From Sulfurimonas sp. (lineage in GTDB: Bacteria; Campylobacterota; Campylobacteria; Campylobacterales; Sulfurimonadaceae): a DNA stretch of 64,000 nt. The position numbers and the translations under genes were made by a program. This document shows, piece after piece, positions 22,698 to 42,435 of this stretch. The notes under the pieces are model-generated. The model had not been told where the DNA came from, did no database searches, and was given only the letters and a program-made list of their open reading frames with translations. The DNA lies in contig NZ_JAHYJB010000004.1 of assembly GCF_019429335.1 (NCBI RefSeq), positions 1-64,000 on the forward strand, given 5' to 3'. Positions within the stretch are counted from its first letter, which is position 1. Each line of letters begins with the position of its first letter.

Positions 22698-23990
22698 GTG
22701 GGACTACTTAGCTGGGGAATGTACCCAAAGATAAAAAACAAAATCTTCTCTTTAAGAAGCAAAGAAGCGCTTGGCGCATATATCGAAAAAACGGATGAGT
22801 TCATCCCGCACGGAAACGGCAGAAGCTACGGTGATTGTGCTTTAAACGAAAATATTCTCTACGCTAAAAGATATAACAATTTCTTAGCATTTGATGAGCT
22901 TAGCGGCACTCTTACATGTCAAGCTGGAGTTCTTCTTAGCGAAATACTCGACACCTTTGTGAAACGCGGATGGTTTTTAAAAGTGACCCCTGGAACCAAG
23001 CTTATCACCATTGGCGGAGCGATTGCAAGCGATGTTCACGGAAAAAACCACCACGTAGAGGGGTGTTTTAGCGAATGCGTTTTAGCGTTTGACATCATGT
23101 TGCCAAACGGCGAGATAAAGAGCTGTAAAAAGGGCGATGAACTCTTCCGTGCAACATGCGGAGGGATGGGACTTACCGGCGTAATACTAGCTGCAAAAAT
23201 AAACCTCAAAAAAATAAACTCCAAAAATATAAACCAGACAACCATAAAGACAAAAAACCTAAAAGAGACTTTTGAAGCCTTTGAAAACTATCAGGAGATG
23301 CCCTACTCCGTGGCGTGGATAGATTGTTTGGCAAAAGACGAGGAGATTGGAAAGTCTCTGCTTATGGTCGGAGATTTTGCCGACGACGGCGACTTGGATT
23401 ACAAAAGCAAAAAGAAGCTAAGCATCCCGTTTAACTTCCCCTCTTTTGCACTTAATAACCTGAGCGTAAAAGCTTTTAACACTCTCTACTACGCAAAAGC
23501 GAAAGACGGTGTATCCAGACAAAAAGTAGATATAGACACCTTTTTCTACCCGCTCGATGCCATAGGCAACTGGAACAGAATCTACGGAAGCGGCGGTTTT
23601 ACGCAGTATCAGTTTATCCTGCCAAAAGAGAGCAGTTTTGAGGGTTTAAAAGAGATTTTAACCAAAATTTCTGCTTCAGGCAAAGGCTCATTTTTGGCAG
23701 TTTTAAAACTATACGGCAAAGAGAATGGAAACTACCTCTCATTTCCGCTAGAGGGCTACTCGCTCGCGCTTGATTTTAAGATAGAGGCGGGTCTGTTTGA
23801 GCTTTTAAACACTCTTGATGAGAGTGTTGTTAAGTACGGCGGCAGAATTTATCTTACAAAAGATGTGCGCGTCAGCTCTGAGATGTTTGAGAAGGGCTAT
23901 CCGCTAGTAGAGAAGTTTCGTGCGTTTAGAAGAGAGAACAACATGGATAAAAAATTAAATTCACTCCAATCAAAAAGGATAAAAATATGA
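22698..23990 (+). CDS. dprE1: Decaprenylphosphoryl-beta-D-ribose 2'-oxidase DprE1
   Basis: A 430-residue FAD oxidoreductase of the vanillyl-alcohol oxidase fold. The FAD-binding segment HGNGRSYGDCALNEN (about residue 35), the PGTKLITIGGAIASDVHGKNHH core and the C-terminal YGGRIYLTKDVRVSSEMF match DprE1; the lysine in LTKD aligns with the catalytic Lys418 of M. tuberculosis. DprE1 oxidises the ribosyl lipid to the 2'-keto form. At the place of the mycobacterial cysteine hit by benzothiazinones (about Cys387) this protein has alanine (SLALDF). The start is GTG at 22698. It overlaps dprE2 by four bases. Confidence 0.92.
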   Translation: MGLLSWGMYPKIKNKIFSLRSKEALGAYIEKTDEFIPHGNGRSYGDCALNENILYAKRYNNFLAFDELSGTLTCQAGVLLSEILDTFVKRGWFLKVTPGTKLITIGGAIASDVHGKNHHVEGCFSECVLAFDIMLPNGEIKSCKKGDELFRATCGGMGLTGVILAAKINLKKINSKNINQTTIKTKNLKETFEAFENYQEMPYSVAWIDCLAKDEEIGKSLLMVGDFADDGDLDYKSKKKLSIPFNFPSFALNNLSVKAFNTLYYAKAKDGVSRQKVDIDTFFYPLDAIGNWNRIYGSGGFTQYQFILPKESSFEGLKEILTKISASGKGSFLAVLKLYGKENGNYLSFPLEGYSLALDFKIEAGLFELLNTLDESVVKYGGRIYLTKDVRVSSEMFEKGYPLVEKFRAFRRENNMDKKLNSLQSKRIKI

Positions 23991-24718
23991 GCTACATTCT
24001 GATAATAGGCGCAAAAAGCGACATCGCAAAAGAGGTGGCAAGAGTATATGCCAAAGCAGGCTACAACCTCTATCTTGCAGCTAGAGAGTGCTCATCTTTA
24101 GAGGATTTAAAGCAGGATATCGAAATAAGAGGCGGCGTGGAAGTGGAGCTTAAAGAGTTTGACATTACAGCCTATGCGACTCATGAAAACTTCTACGACT
24201 CGCTTAAAAAAAGACCGCTTGGCGTTATAGTCGTCTCCGGTTATATGGCTGAGCAAAAAACGGCGCAAAAAGAGTGGATTGAGACTCTAAACACCATTAA
24301 CGTAAACTACACAGGAGCCATCAGCATCCTAAACATAGTCGCCAACGATTTTGAAAAAGAGAGACGCGGCTTTATAGTCGGTGTCAGCTCTGTTGCGGGT
24401 GAGCGAGGAAGAAAAGCCAACTACATCTACGGAAGCGCAAAAGCAGGCTTCTCTGCCTACTTAAGCGGTCTTAGGAATAGACTCCATGAGAGCGGGGTGC
24501 AGGTTCTAACAGTGAAACCGGGCTTTGTTGATACAAAAATGACAGAGGGGCTTGACCTGCCTCAAAAACTCACGGCAAGCCCTAGCGAAGTGGCAGAAGA
24601 TATCTTTAATGCCCAGCAAAAAGGAAGAAATATTCTCTACTCAAAATCTATCTGGATGATTATTATGCTAATCATCAAGCATATCCCTGAGTCTATTTTT
24701 AAGAAAATGAGCATATGA
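23987..24718 (+). CDS. dprE2: Decaprenylphospho-beta-D-erythro-pentofuranosid-2-ulose reductase DprE2
   Basis: A 243-residue short-chain dehydrogenase. It has a Rossmann start ILIIGAKSDIAKEVAR, catalytic serine in GVSSVAGERGRKANY, and the YGSAK (YxxxK) motif near residue 147. The SVAGERGRKxNYIYGSAKAG stretch is especially like mycobacterial DprE2. It reduces the 2'-keto lipid to the arabino epimer, completing epimerisation with DprE1. The C-terminal hydrophobic stretch (WMIIMLIIKHIP) may anchor it to the membrane. It overlaps both neighbours by four bases. Confidence 0.92.
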   Translation: MSYILIIGAKSDIAKEVARVYAKAGYNLYLAARECSSLEDLKQDIEIRGGVEVELKEFDITAYATHENFYDSLKKRPLGVIVVSGYMAEQKTAQKEWIETLNTINVNYTGAISILNIVANDFEKERRGFIVGVSSVAGERGRKANYIYGSAKAGFSAYLSGLRNRLHESGVQVLTVKPGFVDTKMTEGLDLPQKLTASPSEVAEDIFNAQQKGRNILYSKSIWMIIMLIIKHIPESIFKKMSI

Positions 24719-36978: not shown

Positions 36979-38412
36979 TTATATCTTTGAAGCTTTTAAA
37001 AATGTATCTACCCACCAATAAATATCAAACTTTTTAACAATCTTTTGCATATTTTTCATGCGACGTTGTTTCTCTTTGTCATCCATCAACAGAGCTTTTT
37101 TAATAGCTTCAACTACAGAATTTTCATCGAATGGATTTACCAGCAGAGCGTTATCTTTAAACTGATCTTTTGTTCCAGCAAACTCGCTAAGAATCAATAC
37201 TCCGTTTTTATTAATATTTGTAGCACAGTACTCTTTTGCAACCAAATTCATACCATCTCTTAAAGGAGTTACCATGGCAATCTCTGAAGCTCTATAATAG
37301 GCAAGGAGTTCTGTATTATTTAAAGAGTAATAACAATACTGAATAGGAATCCATCCGGGTTGCGTAAACTCCCCATTTATTTCACTTACCAACTGCTCTA
37401 TATCACTTTTAAGATGTATATACTTTATTATATTTTCACGACTTGGCACGACGATTTGAATCAATTTAACTTTTTTGTGCAAATCATGATTTTCATCCAA
37501 AAGCTTCCAGTAAGCCCTTAGCTTTTGCAAGATACCTTTACTATAGTCAAGCCTGTCAACTCCCAACATAATTTTTTGGCCATAGTACTCTTTATTTATC
37601 TTCTCTACCTCTTTGGAGACACGTCTGCTTTTTGCTTTATCATGAAACTCGTCATAATCTATACTTATTGGAAAGACACCGACTTTATGCTCTTTTTTAT
37701 CTATTATTATCTTAGAGATTTCAAGTTTTTCATCTTCAACAACAGCGCTCTTTATAAGTGAGGTAACAACCTCTAGAAAATTCTTTTTATCCAGTGCAGT
37801 CTGAAATCCTATAAGGCTATACGACAACATTGCTTCTATAATCTCTAGCCGCCACGGAAGACGATTGAAAGTCTCTGCGGGAGGGAAAGGTATATGAAGA
37901 AAAAAAACTACTATATTTTTTACACCCTCTTCTCTTAACTCTTTTGCCACATTAATCAGATGATAATCATGAATCCATATAAAATCATCGTCTACTAGTT
38001 CATCCATTACTGTTTTAGCAAACTTTTTATTTACCTTTTTAAAAGCTTCATAATATTTTGGAACAAAATTACAATAAACAGAGACATTATGGAAAAGTGG
38101 CCACAGCACTTCATTGGAAAAACCTTTATAGTAGAGCTTATAGTCATTTAAAGTAATATCTACGGATCTATACTCATAATTTAATTTCTCACCCTCTTTT
38201 TTTAAAAGATTCTCGACTTCAACACTCTCCTCAAAATAATTCCCTGCCCAGCCTATCCAAAGACCACCGTCTCTTTTTAAAATTGGGGTCATAGCCGTAA
38301 CAAGACCTCCTGATGCAGACTGCACTCTATACTCATCATTATCAATCTTTTTTACCACAATAGGAAGCCTGTTTGAAACAACAATCAATCTTCTCTTCTC
38401 TCTATCTTGCAT
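36979..38412 (-). CDS. otsA: Alpha,alpha-trehalose-phosphate synthase (OtsA, GT20)
   Basis: A 477-residue GT20 enzyme that makes trehalose-6-phosphate from UDP-glucose and glucose-6-phosphate. It has VVSNRLPIVV, GGLVTAMTP, WIGWAGNY, GVDRLDYSKGI (donor site) and RDGMNLVAKEY, all complete. It follows the OtsB1-like gene by 18 bases on the same strand, so synthase and phosphatase are made together. Trehalose is a likely osmolyte or stress protectant. Confidence 0.96.
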   Translation of the reverse strand: MQDREKRRLIVVSNRLPIVVKKIDNDEYRVQSASGGLVTAMTPILKRDGGLWIGWAGNYFEESVEVENLLKKEGEKLNYEYRSVDITLNDYKLYYKGFSNEVLWPLFHNVSVYCNFVPKYYEAFKKVNKKFAKTVMDELVDDDFIWIHDYHLINVAKELREEGVKNIVVFFLHIPFPPAETFNRLPWRLEIIEAMLSYSLIGFQTALDKKNFLEVVTSLIKSAVVEDEKLEISKIIIDKKEHKVGVFPISIDYDEFHDKAKSRRVSKEVEKINKEYYGQKIMLGVDRLDYSKGILQKLRAYWKLLDENHDLHKKVKLIQIVVPSRENIIKYIHLKSDIEQLVSEINGEFTQPGWIPIQYCYYSLNNTELLAYYRASEIAMVTPLRDGMNLVAKEYCATNINKNGVLILSEFAGTKDQFKDNALLVNPFDENSVVEAIKKALLMDDKEKQRRMKNMQKIVKKFDIYWWVDTFLKASKI

Positions 38413-38430
38413 TATTTTATCCTTTCTATA

Positions 38431-41400
38431 TCAGTTGCCATACTCTATCTTTCTAATCTCTTTGCCATTAAGTACAAATTTTTTACCTTTTATATTAACG
38501 CTTATAGGCTCCGCATTTGGAACCTGAGTTTCTACAATAACCATATTTTTATATATATTAATTTTTAGCCACTGCCCTCTATAGTGCAGTTTTAGTTTTA
38601 TCTCGTCGAGCTCTTTTGGAAGAGAGGGGTTAAGAATAAAAGTGTTATCTCTTGCTTCTAGACCAGTATAACAACGCTGCATTATGTCAACAGTACCTGC
38701 CATCGCACCGATATGGACGCCCTCAGGTGTTGTTCCTCCTTGTCTGTCCATTACATCCGTCAACAAAGCTTCGTTAAAAAAGCTCCAAGACTCTCTTCTG
38801 TTTGTTCTTGCACTTATCCATGCATGCACGACCTGGCTTAAAGAGGAACCGCCAGAAGTTCTCTGTAGATAATATTTAGAATTCTTTTTGAGCATTTTTT
38901 TGGAAAACATATAACCGAGCTGATGAAAGAGCCCTTTGAGTTCTTCATGAGAAAAGAGGTAAAAAAGCATCAACACATCTGCCTGTTTAGATATCTTGTA
39001 TTGATTTGCACTATCCCCTTCGGCTTCTAGTATTCTATCTAGCCGTTGAATATTCTCATATTTTTGAAGATACAAATCCCAATCAAGCTCTTTAAGATTT
39101 TCATACCCTTCAAACTGGCTGATAATATCATTATCATGAAAAGAAATTTTCATTTTGCGACGGATATCCTCCCATCTTTGGATTTCACTCTGCTCTATTT
39201 GTAGTTTTTCGCATAGCTCTTCAAAATGCAATGGAGATACTATTTTTTGGAGCTCAATAGCTTTATTAAGAACAAATACAGCCATAATATTTGTGTACGC
39301 ATTGTTGTTAATTCCCGAAGTTTTACTTTTTGGATAAGCATCATGATACTCATCAGGTCCGACAACACCTAAAATCTCATATCTCTCTTCGCTATCATTG
39401 TAAGTTGCGATACAAGACCAGAATCTGGCAATTTCAAGTATCATCTCAGCACCGTAAAAATATAAAAACTCATTGTCACCGCTTACTTGGTAGTATTGCC
39501 AAATGTTATAGACAATAGCAGAGTTGATATGTCTTTGAAGATGAGTATTATCCTCTATCCATCTATTGGAATGCGGGTTAAGGTGCAGTGTTTGCGTCTC
39601 CTCTTTGCCGTTGCTTCCGCTCTGCCACGGGTACATTGCACCTTTATATCCCAACGCTTTAGCTGCGCGTCTGGCCTCAGGAAGTCTTCTGTAGCGATAG
39701 AGGATAAAAGAGCGTGTTATCTGGGGAACCCTGTAGTTAAAAAATGGAAATATAAACACCTCATCCCAAAATATATGACCCCTGTATGCCTCTCCATGCC
39801 ATCCTCTAGCCGGAATACCGACATCCATATCAATGGTATGAACAGAAGCGGTCTGCAAAAGATGAAAAATATAAAGGTGCAGCACTCTTTTTAAAAAATA
39901 GTCTTTTTTATCATCTGTAAATTTAAGCTCTATATCAAACTTGTCCCAAAGATGTCCCCAAGCGATTTTATGTTCAACAAGCATTTCCTCAAATCTTTTG
40001 ATATCTTCTAAATCAAGTCTCGATTCAAGATAGCAGTTTGATATCGCTTTATCTTTTGAAGTATAAAACGATATACTCTTCTCTATTTTAAGATACGCTT
40101 CGTTACTTATAGACTCTATAAAAAAACGCTTGGCAATGTAGGACTCATCTTCTATAAATTCAACCTCTGCCAAAAAAGGCTCACTTTTTATAAAAAGTCT
40201 TGTCTTCGCTGCCATGGAAATAGCATGATTTGACTGCAGTGTCTCCATTTTCAAAAAAATTACATCACTCTCAAACTCTTTTTCTATGCACTTTAGATGT
40301 TGATTGCTTAAAGCACTGTAACGTTGCACTCCTTCATTTTTTACATTGCCGTCTATCCCTGATTCCACCTCAATAGCCCCCTCCCAATTAATAGGGATAA
40401 TAATGAGTTCAACTGAAGCAATATGCTTATTTCCCATATGAACAAAACGCTTCTCTATAAGCCTCGTTTCCCTTCCTTTTGCATCACTAAAGTTTATAAG
40501 TTTATGAAAAATGCCATCTTGCATATCAAGTTCTTGGCGAAAAGAGAGAACTGTAGCTTCGTCTATACTAAACCAATCATCGTTTTGTATCTTAAATTTT
40601 AAACTCAGCCAGTTTGGAAAATTAACAAGATCTTCATTCTTAATCTCTTTTCCTTGAATTACTGTTTTAAGCCTATTGTAGCCGCCTGCCAAATAAGTTC
40701 CTGGATAGTGTGTGTTATTAGCTTTTGATTCAGTTGCGGCTGCCCTTGTGATAAAATAACCGTTGCCAAGCGCACATAACACCTCTCTAAGCTTCTCCTC
40801 TTTTGGCGTATAATTATTATAAATCAAAGACCAGATATTACCTTTTTCTATAGAAGAGGAGAGTATCTCTAAAAATTTCAGAGTCTGCTGTGTATCTTTT
40901 AATTTGTACTGAGCTGATGTTGTTCGTGCTTCATTCCCTACCAATATCCCTATTCCATAAGTTTTAATAGCATTAAAAGCATCTTCATCGGTAATGTCAT
41001 CACCGATGTAAAATATTTTACTTCCCTTTTTTTCAATATGAAGCGCTTCAATAAGCCACTCTACGGCTTTGCCTTTATTCCACTCCAGATCAGGCTGCAG
41101 TTCATATAGTTTTTTACCGTAACTCTTACGAATTTTAGGATATTTTTTGAGTGCATCATCCGCCGCTTTTTCTACGACAGCAATATCCTTATTTGCAACA
41201 TTTCTATAATGAAGTGCGATGCTAAATTTTTTACGCTCAACCAAAACCCCTTTTACGCCCGATACTGTTTCATTTAGCTCTACTTCCAACTTATCAAAGA
41301 GTGCAACAAATTCCAAAGCCGGCTGATACTCCATTTTAATGCTTGGACCTTCAATCTCATAACCGTGACTGCCTGAGTAGCAGATGCCCTTGATGCCGAC

Positions 41401-42351
41401 TCTGCTTTTGATATCGTTTAGTCCTCTGCCGCTTATTATGGACAAACTGCACTGGTTTGATAGTTTTGTTAATATGTTTTTCATCTCTACAGAGAGATTT
41501 GCATCTTTTGGATGGGATACAATGGGAGTGAGTGTTCCATCGTAATCAAAAAAGAGGATAACTTCTTTGTCTTTAAACTTGTTTTCGATTTTCTTAAAGG
41601 ATTGTAGTGCAGAGGGAAGTTGTGTTGTATTTGCTTCGATATCTATCTCGGCAAGATCCTCTATAACCAAGTCCGCTCCGGCTTTTTTTAGCTCTTTTGA
41701 ATGTCTGCCCCTATTTACGCCTATTACTTTTGCAAATTCTCCTCTCTTTCCTGCCTTTACCCCGGCAACCGCATCCTCTATCACGATGCTTCTGGATGGT
41801 TTAACACGCAATCTTTTGGCAGCTTCTAAAAAAAGATCTGGCTCAGGCTTGCCCTTTAAATCTAAATTTTGAAGATCAAAGCCATCTACCGTTACGTTAA
41901 AGTATAAATTTATTTTGGCTAATTGCAGTATTGAGGTACAGTTTTTACTTGAGGAGACTACAGCGGTCAGAAAACCTAGATTGTTTAATTTTAAAAGTAG
42001 CTCTACAGAACTCTCATACGTTTCTACGCCCTTGGATACAAGCTCTAAAAAATAGCTGTTTTTGGCATCTCCTAAAATTTCTACACACTCTGTATCTTTT
42101 ATATCTCTTGAAGCAAGAAAACTTTTTATCCCGTCTTCTCTGGATTTTCCATCTACATATTTAAGATAATCTTTAGAGATATCAAAAGGGATAAATGAAG
42201 TTCCCCTCGCTCTCTCTTTTAAAAAATCATCAAAAGTTTTTTTCCATGCTTTTGCATGAAGCTCCTGCGTCTTGGTAACAACGCCATCAAGATCAAATAT
42301 AACAGCATCATACAGTGATCTGTTTATCATATATTTTTCTTTTATACTCAC
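38431..42351 (-). CDS. otsB: Three-domain trehalose enzyme: beta-phosphoglucomutase-like HAD, OtsB phosphatase and GH65
   Basis: A 1306-residue protein in three parts. Residues about 14-240: HAD domain FDLDGVVTKTQ, SSSKNC, KGKPEPDLF, IEDAVAGVKAG, like beta-phosphoglucomutase. Residues about 255-490: trehalose-6-phosphate phosphatase, with FFDYDGTLTPI, IISGRGLNDI and GDDITDEDAF. Residues about 505-1306: GH65, with GHIFWDEVFIFPFF (about 850) and GPDEYHDAY (about 995) holding the catalytic glutamate. All active-site residues seen are intact. The same order occurs in the mycobacterial OtsB1 (Rv2006, 1327 residues). It could both make trehalose (OtsB) and phosphorolyse it to glucose plus beta-glucose-1-phosphate, then isomerise that. 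First of a pair with otsA. Confidence 0.9.
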   Translation of the reverse strand: MSIKEKYMINRSLYDAVIFDLDGVVTKTQELHAKAWKKTFDDFLKERARGTSFIPFDISKDYLKYVDGKSREDGIKSFLASRDIKDTECVEILGDAKNSYFLELVSKGVETYESSVELLLKLNNLGFLTAVVSSSKNCTSILQLAKINLYFNVTVDGFDLQNLDLKGKPEPDLFLEAAKRLRVKPSRSIVIEDAVAGVKAGKRGEFAKVIGVNRGRHSKELKKAGADLVIEDLAEIDIEANTTQLPSALQSFKKIENKFKDKEVILFFDYDGTLTPIVSHPKDANLSVEMKNILTKLSNQCSLSIISGRGLNDIKSRVGIKGICYSGSHGYEIEGPSIKMEYQPALEFVALFDKLEVELNETVSGVKGVLVERKKFSIALHYRNVANKDIAVVEKAADDALKKYPKIRKSYGKKLYELQPDLEWNKGKAVEWLIEALHIEKKGSKIFYIGDDITDEDAFNAIKTYGIGILVGNEARTTSAQYKLKDTQQTLKFLEILSSSIEKGNIWSLIYNNYTPKEEKLREVLCALGNGYFITRAAATESKANNTHYPGTYLAGGYNRLKTVIQGKEIKNEDLVNFPNWLSLKFKIQNDDWFSIDEATVLSFRQELDMQDGIFHKLINFSDAKGRETRLIEKRFVHMGNKHIASVELIIIPINWEGAIEVESGIDGNVKNEGVQRYSALSNQHLKCIEKEFESDVIFLKMETLQSNHAISMAAKTRLFIKSEPFLAEVEFIEDESYIAKRFFIESISNEAYLKIEKSISFYTSKDKAISNCYLESRLDLEDIKRFEEMLVEHKIAWGHLWDKFDIELKFTDDKKDYFLKRVLHLYIFHLLQTASVHTIDMDVGIPARGWHGEAYRGHIFWDEVFIFPFFNYRVPQITRSFILYRYRRLPEARRAAKALGYKGAMYPWQSGSNGKEETQTLHLNPHSNRWIEDNTHLQRHINSAIVYNIWQYYQVSGDNEFLYFYGAEMILEIARFWSCIATYNDSEERYEILGVVGPDEYHDAYPKSKTSGINNNAYTNIMAVFVLNKAIELQKIVSPLHFEELCEKLQIEQSEIQRWEDIRRKMKISFHDNDIISQFEGYENLKELDWDLYLQKYENIQRLDRILEAEGDSANQYKISKQADVLMLFYLFSHEELKGLFHQLGYMFSKKMLKKNSKYYLQRTSGGSSLSQVVHAWISARTNRRESWSFFNEALLTDVMDRQGGTTPEGVHIGAMAGTVDIMQRCYTGLEARDNTFILNPSLPKELDEIKLKLHYRGQWLKINIYKNMVIVETQVPNAEPISVNIKGKKFVLNGKEIRKIEYGN

Positions 42352-42435
42352 AAAAACCTCCTTTATCTTTTAAATAAAGAAAATATAAAAAAACATTATA
42401 TCATTATTTTTTATTTGGCTTAAACACTCTCTTAT

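What the first reader, a model, noticed from the sequence alone, without database searches (positions are those of the whole stretch)
36979..42351. Mycobacterial OtsB1-like three-domain protein with OtsA
HAD-OtsB-GH65 fused in one chain next to otsA would allow synthesis and phosphorolysis of trehalose in one operon, potentially a futile cycle unless regulated. All seen catalytic residues are intact. Together with the dprE genes it is a second mycobacterial-like trait in this window.
Basis: partly seen in the sequence, partly recalled or inferred. Interest (0 to 1): 0.5.

Follow-up and report, generated by a model that had tools for sequence, protein, structure and literature searches.

The report
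Three-in-one trehalose enzyme beside OtsA
One bacterial gene joins three sugar enzymes that together could build the protective sugar trehalose directly from glucose-6-phosphate; related modules exist in bacteria that lack the usual first enzyme, and this suggests a testable function for the tuberculosis protein OtsB1.

Summary
Confirmed: window 38431-42351 (-) encodes a 1306-aa HAD/OtsB/GH65 protein, 18 bp upstream of otsA (36979-38412), with catalytic residues kept in all three domains.

The reading changes in two ways. (1) The GH65 specificity positions read D-Q-G-Q-(D/N)-E. The published motif of trehalose-6-phosphate (T6P) phosphorylase is DQGQDE; that of trehalose phosphorylase is TRIGPP. 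All 46 scored OtsB-linked GH65 domains carry R677/H923/R1106, which a T6P-named Weissella enzyme shares and kojibiose phosphorylase lacks. So GH65 most likely acts on T6P, not free trehalose. (2) The trait is not mycobacterial: HAD-OtsB plus GH65, fused or adjacent, occurs in many phyla. In a family around Thioalkalivibrio, 12 of 47 genomes have GH65, all 12 also OtsB, and none of 47 has OtsA. One such cluster also holds GlgB, GlgE and TreS.

Best explanation, inferred: 2 glucose-6-P -> beta-glucose-1-P + glucose-6-P -> T6P -> trehalose on one chain, without a nucleotide sugar. Against it: TreY exists in most OtsA-less genomes, the window genome has OtsA but no GH37 trehalase, and the M. tuberculosis otsA mutant needs TreXYZ. 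Enzymology is decisive. The sampled M. tuberculosis literature calls OtsB1 uncharacterised.

The parts
38431..42351 (-). three-domain gene HAD-OtsB-GH65, 1306 aa (OtsB1-like architecture)
42357..42364 (-). Shine-Dalgarno AAAGGAGG for the GTG start
41632..42312 (-). HAD domain, residues 14-240, beta-phosphoglucomutase-like (D20, D22, W36, R71, S135, K136, N137, E192)
40858..41559 (-). OtsB trehalose-6-phosphate phosphatase domain, residues 265-498; TIGR00685 168.7 bits, cut-off 68.05
38458..40839 (-). GH65 domain, residues 505-1298, predicted T6P phosphorylase
40630..40632 (-). GH65 specificity position D574 (CsKP 64)
39550..39624 (-). GH65 loop Q910-D934 with Q910, G912, Q920, H923 and D934 (CsKP 392, 394, 402, 405; 416 is D934 by phmmer or N935 by MAFFT)
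39349..39351 (-). general acid E1001 in GPDEYH
39019..39036 (-). R1106 to E1111 (E1111 = CsKP 585); R1106 is a candidate ligand of the 6-phosphate
38842..38847 (-). Ser1169-Ser1170, phosphate-site serines of GH65 phosphorylases
38713..38715 (-). His1213, phosphate-site histidine
36979..38412 (-). otsA, T6P synthase, 477 aa, 18 bp downstream

Best explanation
The protein is a self-contained trehalose synthase built from three enzymes. The HAD domain (beta-phosphoglucomutase) turns glucose-6-P into beta-glucose-1-P. The GH65 domain (T6P phosphorylase run backwards) joins beta-glucose-1-P to a second glucose-6-P, giving T6P and phosphate. The OtsB domain then removes the phosphate irreversibly. 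Net: 2 glucose-6-P + H2O -> trehalose + 2 Pi, without UDP- or ADP-glucose. In the window organism OtsA is a second, nucleotide-sugar-dependent source of T6P for the same OtsB domain. Shown here: domains, intact residues, T6P-type specificity residues, fusion or linkage, and existence of related modules without OtsA. Inferred: substrate, direction and physiology.
For: Specificity residues DQGQ(D/N)E equal the motif of the verified T6P phosphorylase of Caldithrix abyssi. R677/H923/R1106 are present in 46 of 46 scored OtsB-linked GH65 and in the T6P-named Weissella enzyme 9lb6, and absent from the OtsB-less HQGP group (0 of 5) and the OtsB-less Nitrobacter HAD-GH65. The phosphate-site serines and histidine of phosphorylases are kept, unlike the GH65 hydrolase FjGH65A. 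The partner of HAD-OtsB is GH65 (fused or adjacent in 39 of 45 loci), while OtsA is on the locus in 5 of 45. No OtsA match in 11 of 50 genomes and in 0 of 47 genomes of the Thioalkalivibrio family, where 12 have GH65 and all 12 also OtsB. No trehalose PTS over cut-off in 14 genomes checked. L104: three-domain gene - GlgB - GlgE - TreS/maltokinase, a trehalose-consuming glucan operon without OtsA in the genome. Fused versus split needs at least 5 changes on the tree. The T6P phosphorylase step strongly favours T6P synthesis in vitro (PMC13121652 passages).
Against: TreY is over cut-off in 18 of the 21 OtsA-less genomes searched, so trehalose can also come from glycogen there. Only two genomes (both bins, G225 and G231) lack OtsA, TreS and TreY together. 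In M. tuberculosis, which has OtsB1, the otsA deletion makes treX/Y/Z essential without trehalose, so OtsB1 does not supply enough under those conditions (PMC5148154 passages); OtsB1 is a DosR-regulon protein seen only in starved cells in one proteome (PMC12090744). Most OtsB-module genomes do have OtsA (38 of 50 over cut-off). The HAD domain is below the beta-PGM equivalog cut-off (108.3 against 189.4). No activity of any member was found in print in the searches made. Position 416 aligns as D or N depending on the program. The OtsB-linked GH65 sequences are related to one another, so 46 of 46 is not 46 independent cases.
Confidence: 0.5

Rival explanations
1. One reading: the GH65 domain is a trehalose phosphorylase. 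OtsA and OtsB make trehalose; GH65 and the mutase later return it to glycolysis as glucose plus glucose-6-P. Synthesis and mobilisation sit in one operon.
For: The window genome and its three module-bearing relatives have no GH37 trehalase (0 of 4), and TreS and TreY are absent or only sub-cut-off, so trehalose would otherwise have no known exit. In OtsA-less genomes TreY could supply free trehalose.
Against: Specificity residues are not those of trehalose phosphorylase (TRIGPP). OtsB would have no substrate in genomes without OtsA and PTS, yet it stays with catalytic residues intact. GH15-type trehalases were not searched.
Confidence: 0.25
2. T6P valve: GH65 and the mutase break down T6P from OtsA back to two glucose-6-P when phosphate is high, so OtsB and GH65 compete for T6P and set its level.
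For: Same specificity evidence for T6P. OtsA is adjacent in all 4 genomes of the window clade. T6P accumulation is toxic in M. tuberculosis (PMC5148154). Lactococcus uses its T6P phosphorylase catabolically (reference titles seen; otherwise recalled).
Against: Cannot apply where OtsA and PTS are missing. The reaction is described as nearly irreversible towards T6P under standard conditions.
Confidence: 0.18
3. The GH65 domain is a hydrolase of T6P or trehalose, as fungal acid trehalases are hydrolases in this family.
For: The closest solved chain is deposited as 'trehalose-6-phosphate hydrolase', while the entry title says phosphatase. A Streptomyces GH65 of subgroup 19 was predicted to be a hydrolase in print.
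Against: FjGH65A lost the two phosphate serines and the histidine; the window protein keeps all three. A fused beta-phosphoglucomutase makes sense only with beta-glucose-1-P. The base residue Glu616 could not be placed by alignment.
Confidence: 0.06

Closest known systems
Mycobacterium tuberculosis OtsB1 (Rv2006), function unknown
   Same: 1327 aa in size; same HAD-OtsB-GH65 order in Mycobacteriales loci L047, L048, L050, L056, L058; same RHR residues
   Different: Different GH65 clade; first specificity letter S instead of D; not beside otsA in the loci seen; Rv2006 itself was not fetched
GH65 trehalose-6-phosphate phosphorylase (EC 2.4.1.216), Lactococcus TrePP, Caldithrix CaGP
   Same: Six specificity letters DQGQDE (CaGP) by the phmmer alignment, and fold (9lb6 Z 47.1, rmsd 1.9 over 768)
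   Different: Fused to OtsB and HAD; no PTS; proposed to run in the synthesis direction
OtsAB pathway
   Same: Ends in T6P -> trehalose by OtsB
   Different: T6P proposed to come also from beta-glucose-1-P, without a nucleotide sugar
Beta-phosphoglucomutase 8h5s (probably Rv3400 of M. tuberculosis, recalled)
   Same: 8h5s is the closest solved HAD chain, E 9.3e-50
   Different: Stand-alone protein
In vitro T6P phosphorylase cascade (PMC13121652, 'new-to-nature')
   Same: Same key reaction, run to T6P
   Different: Maltose phosphorylase and polyphosphate glucokinase supply the sugars; a synthetic cocktail

Membership tests
OtsB1-type three-domain protein | HAD, OtsB and GH65 domains in that order in one chain of about 1300 aa | tested here: met
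T6P phosphatase (OtsB, EC 3.1.3.12) | equivalog score over cut-off and catalytic Asp residues | tested here: met
   168.7 bits, cut-off 68.05; D269, D271, D451, D452 invariant
GH65 T6P phosphorylase (EC 2.4.1.216) | specificity motif DQGQDE at CsKP 64, 392, 394, 402, 416, 585 | tested here: met
   D,Q,G,Q,D,E by phmmer; the fifth letter is N by MAFFT
GH65 T6P phosphorylase (EC 2.4.1.216) | phosphate site: two Ser, His, Lys | tested here: inconclusive
   Ser-Ser and His kept; the lysine was not placed with certainty, both candidate lysines of CsKP (330, 338) are Arg here and in 9lb6
GH65 T6P phosphorylase (EC 2.4.1.216) | activity on T6P | not testable with these tools
   needs enzyme assay
GH65 trehalose phosphorylase (EC 2.4.1.64) | specificity motif TRIGPP | tested here: not met
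GH65 hydrolase (FjGH65A type) | loss of the phosphate serines and histidine, gain of base Glu616 | tested here: not met
   serines and histidine retained; Glu616 equivalent not placed
beta-phosphoglucomutase (EC 5.4.2.6) | HAD nucleophile and acid/base Asp pair with cap residues | tested here: met
   D20, D22, the H..AWK stretch, R71, S135-K136-N137 and E192 align with 1lvh; conservation; residue roles recalled
beta-phosphoglucomutase (EC 5.4.2.6) | equivalog score TIGR01990 over cut-off | tested here: not met
   108.3 against 189.4; subfamily TIGR02009 just over, 154.6 against 153.35
OtsA (EC 2.4.1.15) | TIGR02400 equivalog over cut-off | tested here: not met
   525.7 against 564.85, but PF00982 465 bits and close to solved OtsA

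The most novel reading that the evidence does not exclude
A further natural trehalose biosynthesis pathway, across many phyla, that makes trehalose from two glucose-6-phosphates on one protein or one operon (beta-phosphoglucomutase, reverse T6P phosphorylase, T6P phosphatase) with no nucleotide sugar. It would feed GlgE-type glucan synthesis in OtsA-less bacteria and would be the function of mycobacterial OtsB1.
Probability: 0.42. Interest if true: 0.82.

Novelty: new variant of a known kind. Interest (0 to 1): 0.56.

Why it matters
The function of M. tuberculosis OtsB1 is called unknown in a 2024 review (PMC11046441) and 'yet to be biochemically characterized' in 2025 (PMC12090744). The window protein and its OtsA-less relatives give a concrete, cheap test: does the GH65 domain make T6P from beta-glucose-1-P and glucose-6-P, and does the whole protein make trehalose from glucose-6-P alone? 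If so, trehalose synthesis has a route independent of nucleotide sugars that pathway lists based on OtsA would miss in sulfur oxidisers and others, and it would explain how GlgE operons without OtsA get their trehalose.

Tried and rejected
Hydrolase idea: at first E1210 (TPEGVH) looked like a hydrolase base, but a putative kojibiose phosphorylase from the human microbiome (6w0p) has Glu there too, so it does not discriminate. The fold search does not separate hydrolase from phosphorylase (7fe3 Z 39.5). R677 may lie far from the active site; no coordinates were available to measure it.

In the linkage table L034 and L079 were scored 'none' although HAD-OtsB or OtsB frames overlap the start of their GH65 frame; putting them right would add two more RHR cases to the linked side. 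Three OtsB-linked rows were incomplete (L027, L033, L035), and these and other rows with gaps at the scored columns were left out of the 46/0 against 9/6 count. In one search I gave 50 of the 80 loci: those with HAD and OtsB detected, plus L065 and L094; L094 has OtsAB and HAD but no HAD-OtsB frame. L071 and L077 were not given. Of the 11 genomes without OtsA, G223 has no GH65 hit. G240 has only sub-cut-off OtsA hits and is not counted as OtsA-less. For some searches G223 and G240 were left out.

Literature: searches in the open PMC set listed no paper that, from title and abstract, proposes T6P phosphorylase plus OtsB as a natural trehalose route; searches used narrow terms and found nothing. 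Subscription papers are not covered. Papers were read as passages or named sections only (PMC8626586, PMC8537180 sections 5-7 and passages, PMC6606615, PMC11046441, PMC13121652, PMC12282177, PMC8950772, PMC5317091, PMC5148154, PMC2867773, PMC12090744).
Full report
OBSERVATION. The window holds, on the minus strand, a 3921-bp gene (38431-42351) for a 1306-aa protein and, 18 bp further on, a 477-aa gene (36979-38412). Pfam finds HAD, Trehalose_PPase and the three GH65 parts in one frame, and Glyco_transf_20 in the second gene. Both starts have Shine-Dalgarno sites. It is the only OtsB and the only GH65 in the genome. Of 200 genomes of the same family 4, including the window's own, carry the full-length protein, in two genera, with otsA directly downstream in all 4. 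The sequence observation is confirmed.

ACTIVE SITES. In alignments of the related loci with HAD and OtsB, D20 and D22 are invariant in 55 of 55 HAD domains, and D269, D271, D451 and D452 in 55 of 55 OtsB domains. The OtsB domain is well over the T6P-phosphatase equivalog cut-off. The HAD domain is closest to a solved beta-phosphoglucomutase, 8h5s; it passes the subfamily cut-off narrowly and not the equivalog cut-off. The GH65 general acid E1001 and the phosphate-site Ser1169, Ser1170 and His1213 are present. The GH65 hydrolase FjGH65A has lost those serines and the histidine (PMC8626586 passages).

WHAT THE GH65 DOMAIN ACTS ON. De Beul et al. (PMC8537180, sections read) give six positions that predict GH65 specificity and verified the T6P phosphorylase of Caldithrix abyssi, motif DQGQDE, and a trehalose phosphorylase, motif TRIGPP. 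Mapped through CsKP (3wiq), the window protein reads D574, Q910, G912, Q920, D934 (or N935 by MAFFT), E1111. 3wiq itself gives EEAPWE, as the paper's EEAPxx requires, so the mapping works. Three further basic residues, R677, H923 and R1106, are shared by this clade and by 9lb6, a Weissella ceti enzyme deposited with T6P in its name, but not by 3wiq. All 46 scored OtsB-linked GH65 domains have H923 and R1106; among 15 scored without OtsB linkage 9 have both and 6 do not (Fisher p 9e-5, but the rows are related, and two of the 15 were misplaced). The OtsB-less Nitrobacter relative with the same six letters lacks all three. H923 lies between specificity positions 402 and 416 and R1106 five residues before position 585, so they are plausible ligands of the 6-phosphate; this is inference. 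The AlphaFold model (pLDDT 92.7) fits 9lb6 with rmsd 1.9 over 768 residues.

DISTRIBUTION AND PARTNERS. One genome-contig scan kept the best 80 of 525 loci. HAD and OtsB share a frame in 45; GH65 is fused (11) or adjacent (28) in 39 of these 45, and of the other 6 two end at a contig end within 1.5 kb. OtsA is on the locus in only 5 of 45. Hosts include Desulfobacterota, Gammaproteobacteria, Alphaproteobacteria, Bacteroidota, Nitrospirota, Chlamydiota, Chloroflexota, Elusimicrobiota, Omnitrophota, Spirochaetota and Actinomycetota, many of them metagenome bins. On the GH65 tree the window clade joins a Ca. Ethanoperedens bin and is not close to Mycobacteriales; fused versus split needs at least 5 changes. 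Repeated fusion or fission of the same three activities argues for one linked reaction sequence.

MODULES WITHOUT OTSA. PF00982 found no match in 11 of 50 genomes, among them the isolates Kineobactrum sediminis, Thiohalocapsa halophila, Thioalkalivibrio thiocyanoxidans and Legionella saoudiensis. In the family around Thioalkalivibrio, 12 of 47 genomes have GH65, 0 of 47 have OtsA, and all 12 have exactly one OtsB. In 9 of the 12 the OtsB and GH65 hits lie in open frames of the same length, 1361-1378 aa; the fusion was read directly in 6 of 8 fetched stretches of that family. No trehalose PTS passes its cut-off in 14 genomes searched, 12 of them the OtsA-poor set. In L104 the three-domain gene is followed by GlgB, GlgE and TreS-maltokinase; GlgE and TreS also lie beside the module in Legionella saoudiensis (L111). 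That pathway consumes trehalose, so a head gene that makes trehalose fits.

MECHANISM. With no OtsA and no PTS, the T6P for the OtsB domain most simply comes from GH65 itself: beta-glucose-1-P + glucose-6-P -> T6P + Pi. Passages of PMC13121652 report a Keq of 760 (given once for the cascade, once for its last step), call the T6P phosphorylase step nearly irreversible towards T6P, report 93% yield, and call their pathway new-to-nature. The HAD domain would supply beta-glucose-1-P, and OtsB would complete the pull. Substrate, direction and flux are inferred, not shown.

AGAINST. TreY passes its cut-off in 18 of the 21 OtsA-less genomes searched and TreS in 11 of 21; the four window-clade genomes searched with them have neither over cut-off. 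Trehalose could thus come from glycogen, and a trehalose-degrading GH65 is possible there. Only G225 and G231, both bins, lack all of OtsA, TreS and TreY. The window genome and three relatives lack GH37 trehalase, which makes a trehalose-mobilising role attractive in the window itself. In M. tuberculosis, treX/Y/Z become essential without trehalose once otsA is deleted (PMC5148154), so OtsB1 does not replace OtsA under those conditions; OtsB1 is listed as DosR-regulated and was seen only in starved cells in one proteome. A lack of T6P phosphatase activity of OtsB1 is stated in PMC11046441, while PMC12090744 says that the 2004 claim came without data.

VERDICT. Real and intact; a known three-domain architecture; not mycobacterial in spread or nearest kin. 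Trehalose phosphorylase remains the main rival.

Noticed in passing
window 22698-24718 (+): DprE1-like (375.1 bits, cut-off 500) and DprE2-like (183.7, cut-off 250) genes side by side, followed by a PMT_2 mannosyltransferase gene; both are below NCBI's cut-offs for the mycobacterial enzymes.
   Followed up: partly
window 38431-42351 versus PDB 5gvx: The solved trehalose-phosphate phosphatase 5gvx (430 aa; mycobacterial OtsB2 as I recall) aligns from query residue 172, so its N-terminal part looks like the remnant of a HAD domain: it may descend from a HAD-OtsB protein.
   Followed up: no
L020:5468-15694 (Nitrobacter hamburgensis plasmid): HAD-GH65 without OtsB lies among acetate kinase, glucokinase, a HAD-IIB hydrolase, a glycosidase and phosphoketolase; its GH65 lacks the R/H/R residues. 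It could be a phosphorolytic route for free trehalose into fermentation.
   Followed up: partly
L018, L065, L069, L072 (Rhodococcus, Mycobacterium): In some Actinomycetota the HAD domain of the three-domain protein is shortened or not detectable while OtsB and GH65 stay intact.
   Followed up: no
L019:11360-12193 and L102:5959-7233: Polyphosphate kinase 2 genes lie next to the module in Rubrobacter and in a Thioalkalivibrio-family genome.
   Followed up: no
L101:9451-12099, L103:4792-7482, L108:89-2749: An acyl-activating enzyme/acyltransferase protein of about 890 aa follows the three-domain gene in three Thioalkalivibrio-family loci.
   Followed up: no
L021: The closest non-family relative sits on a 6.9-kb contig binned as the archaeon Ca. 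Ethanoperedens; it may be a binning error or a transfer.
   Followed up: no
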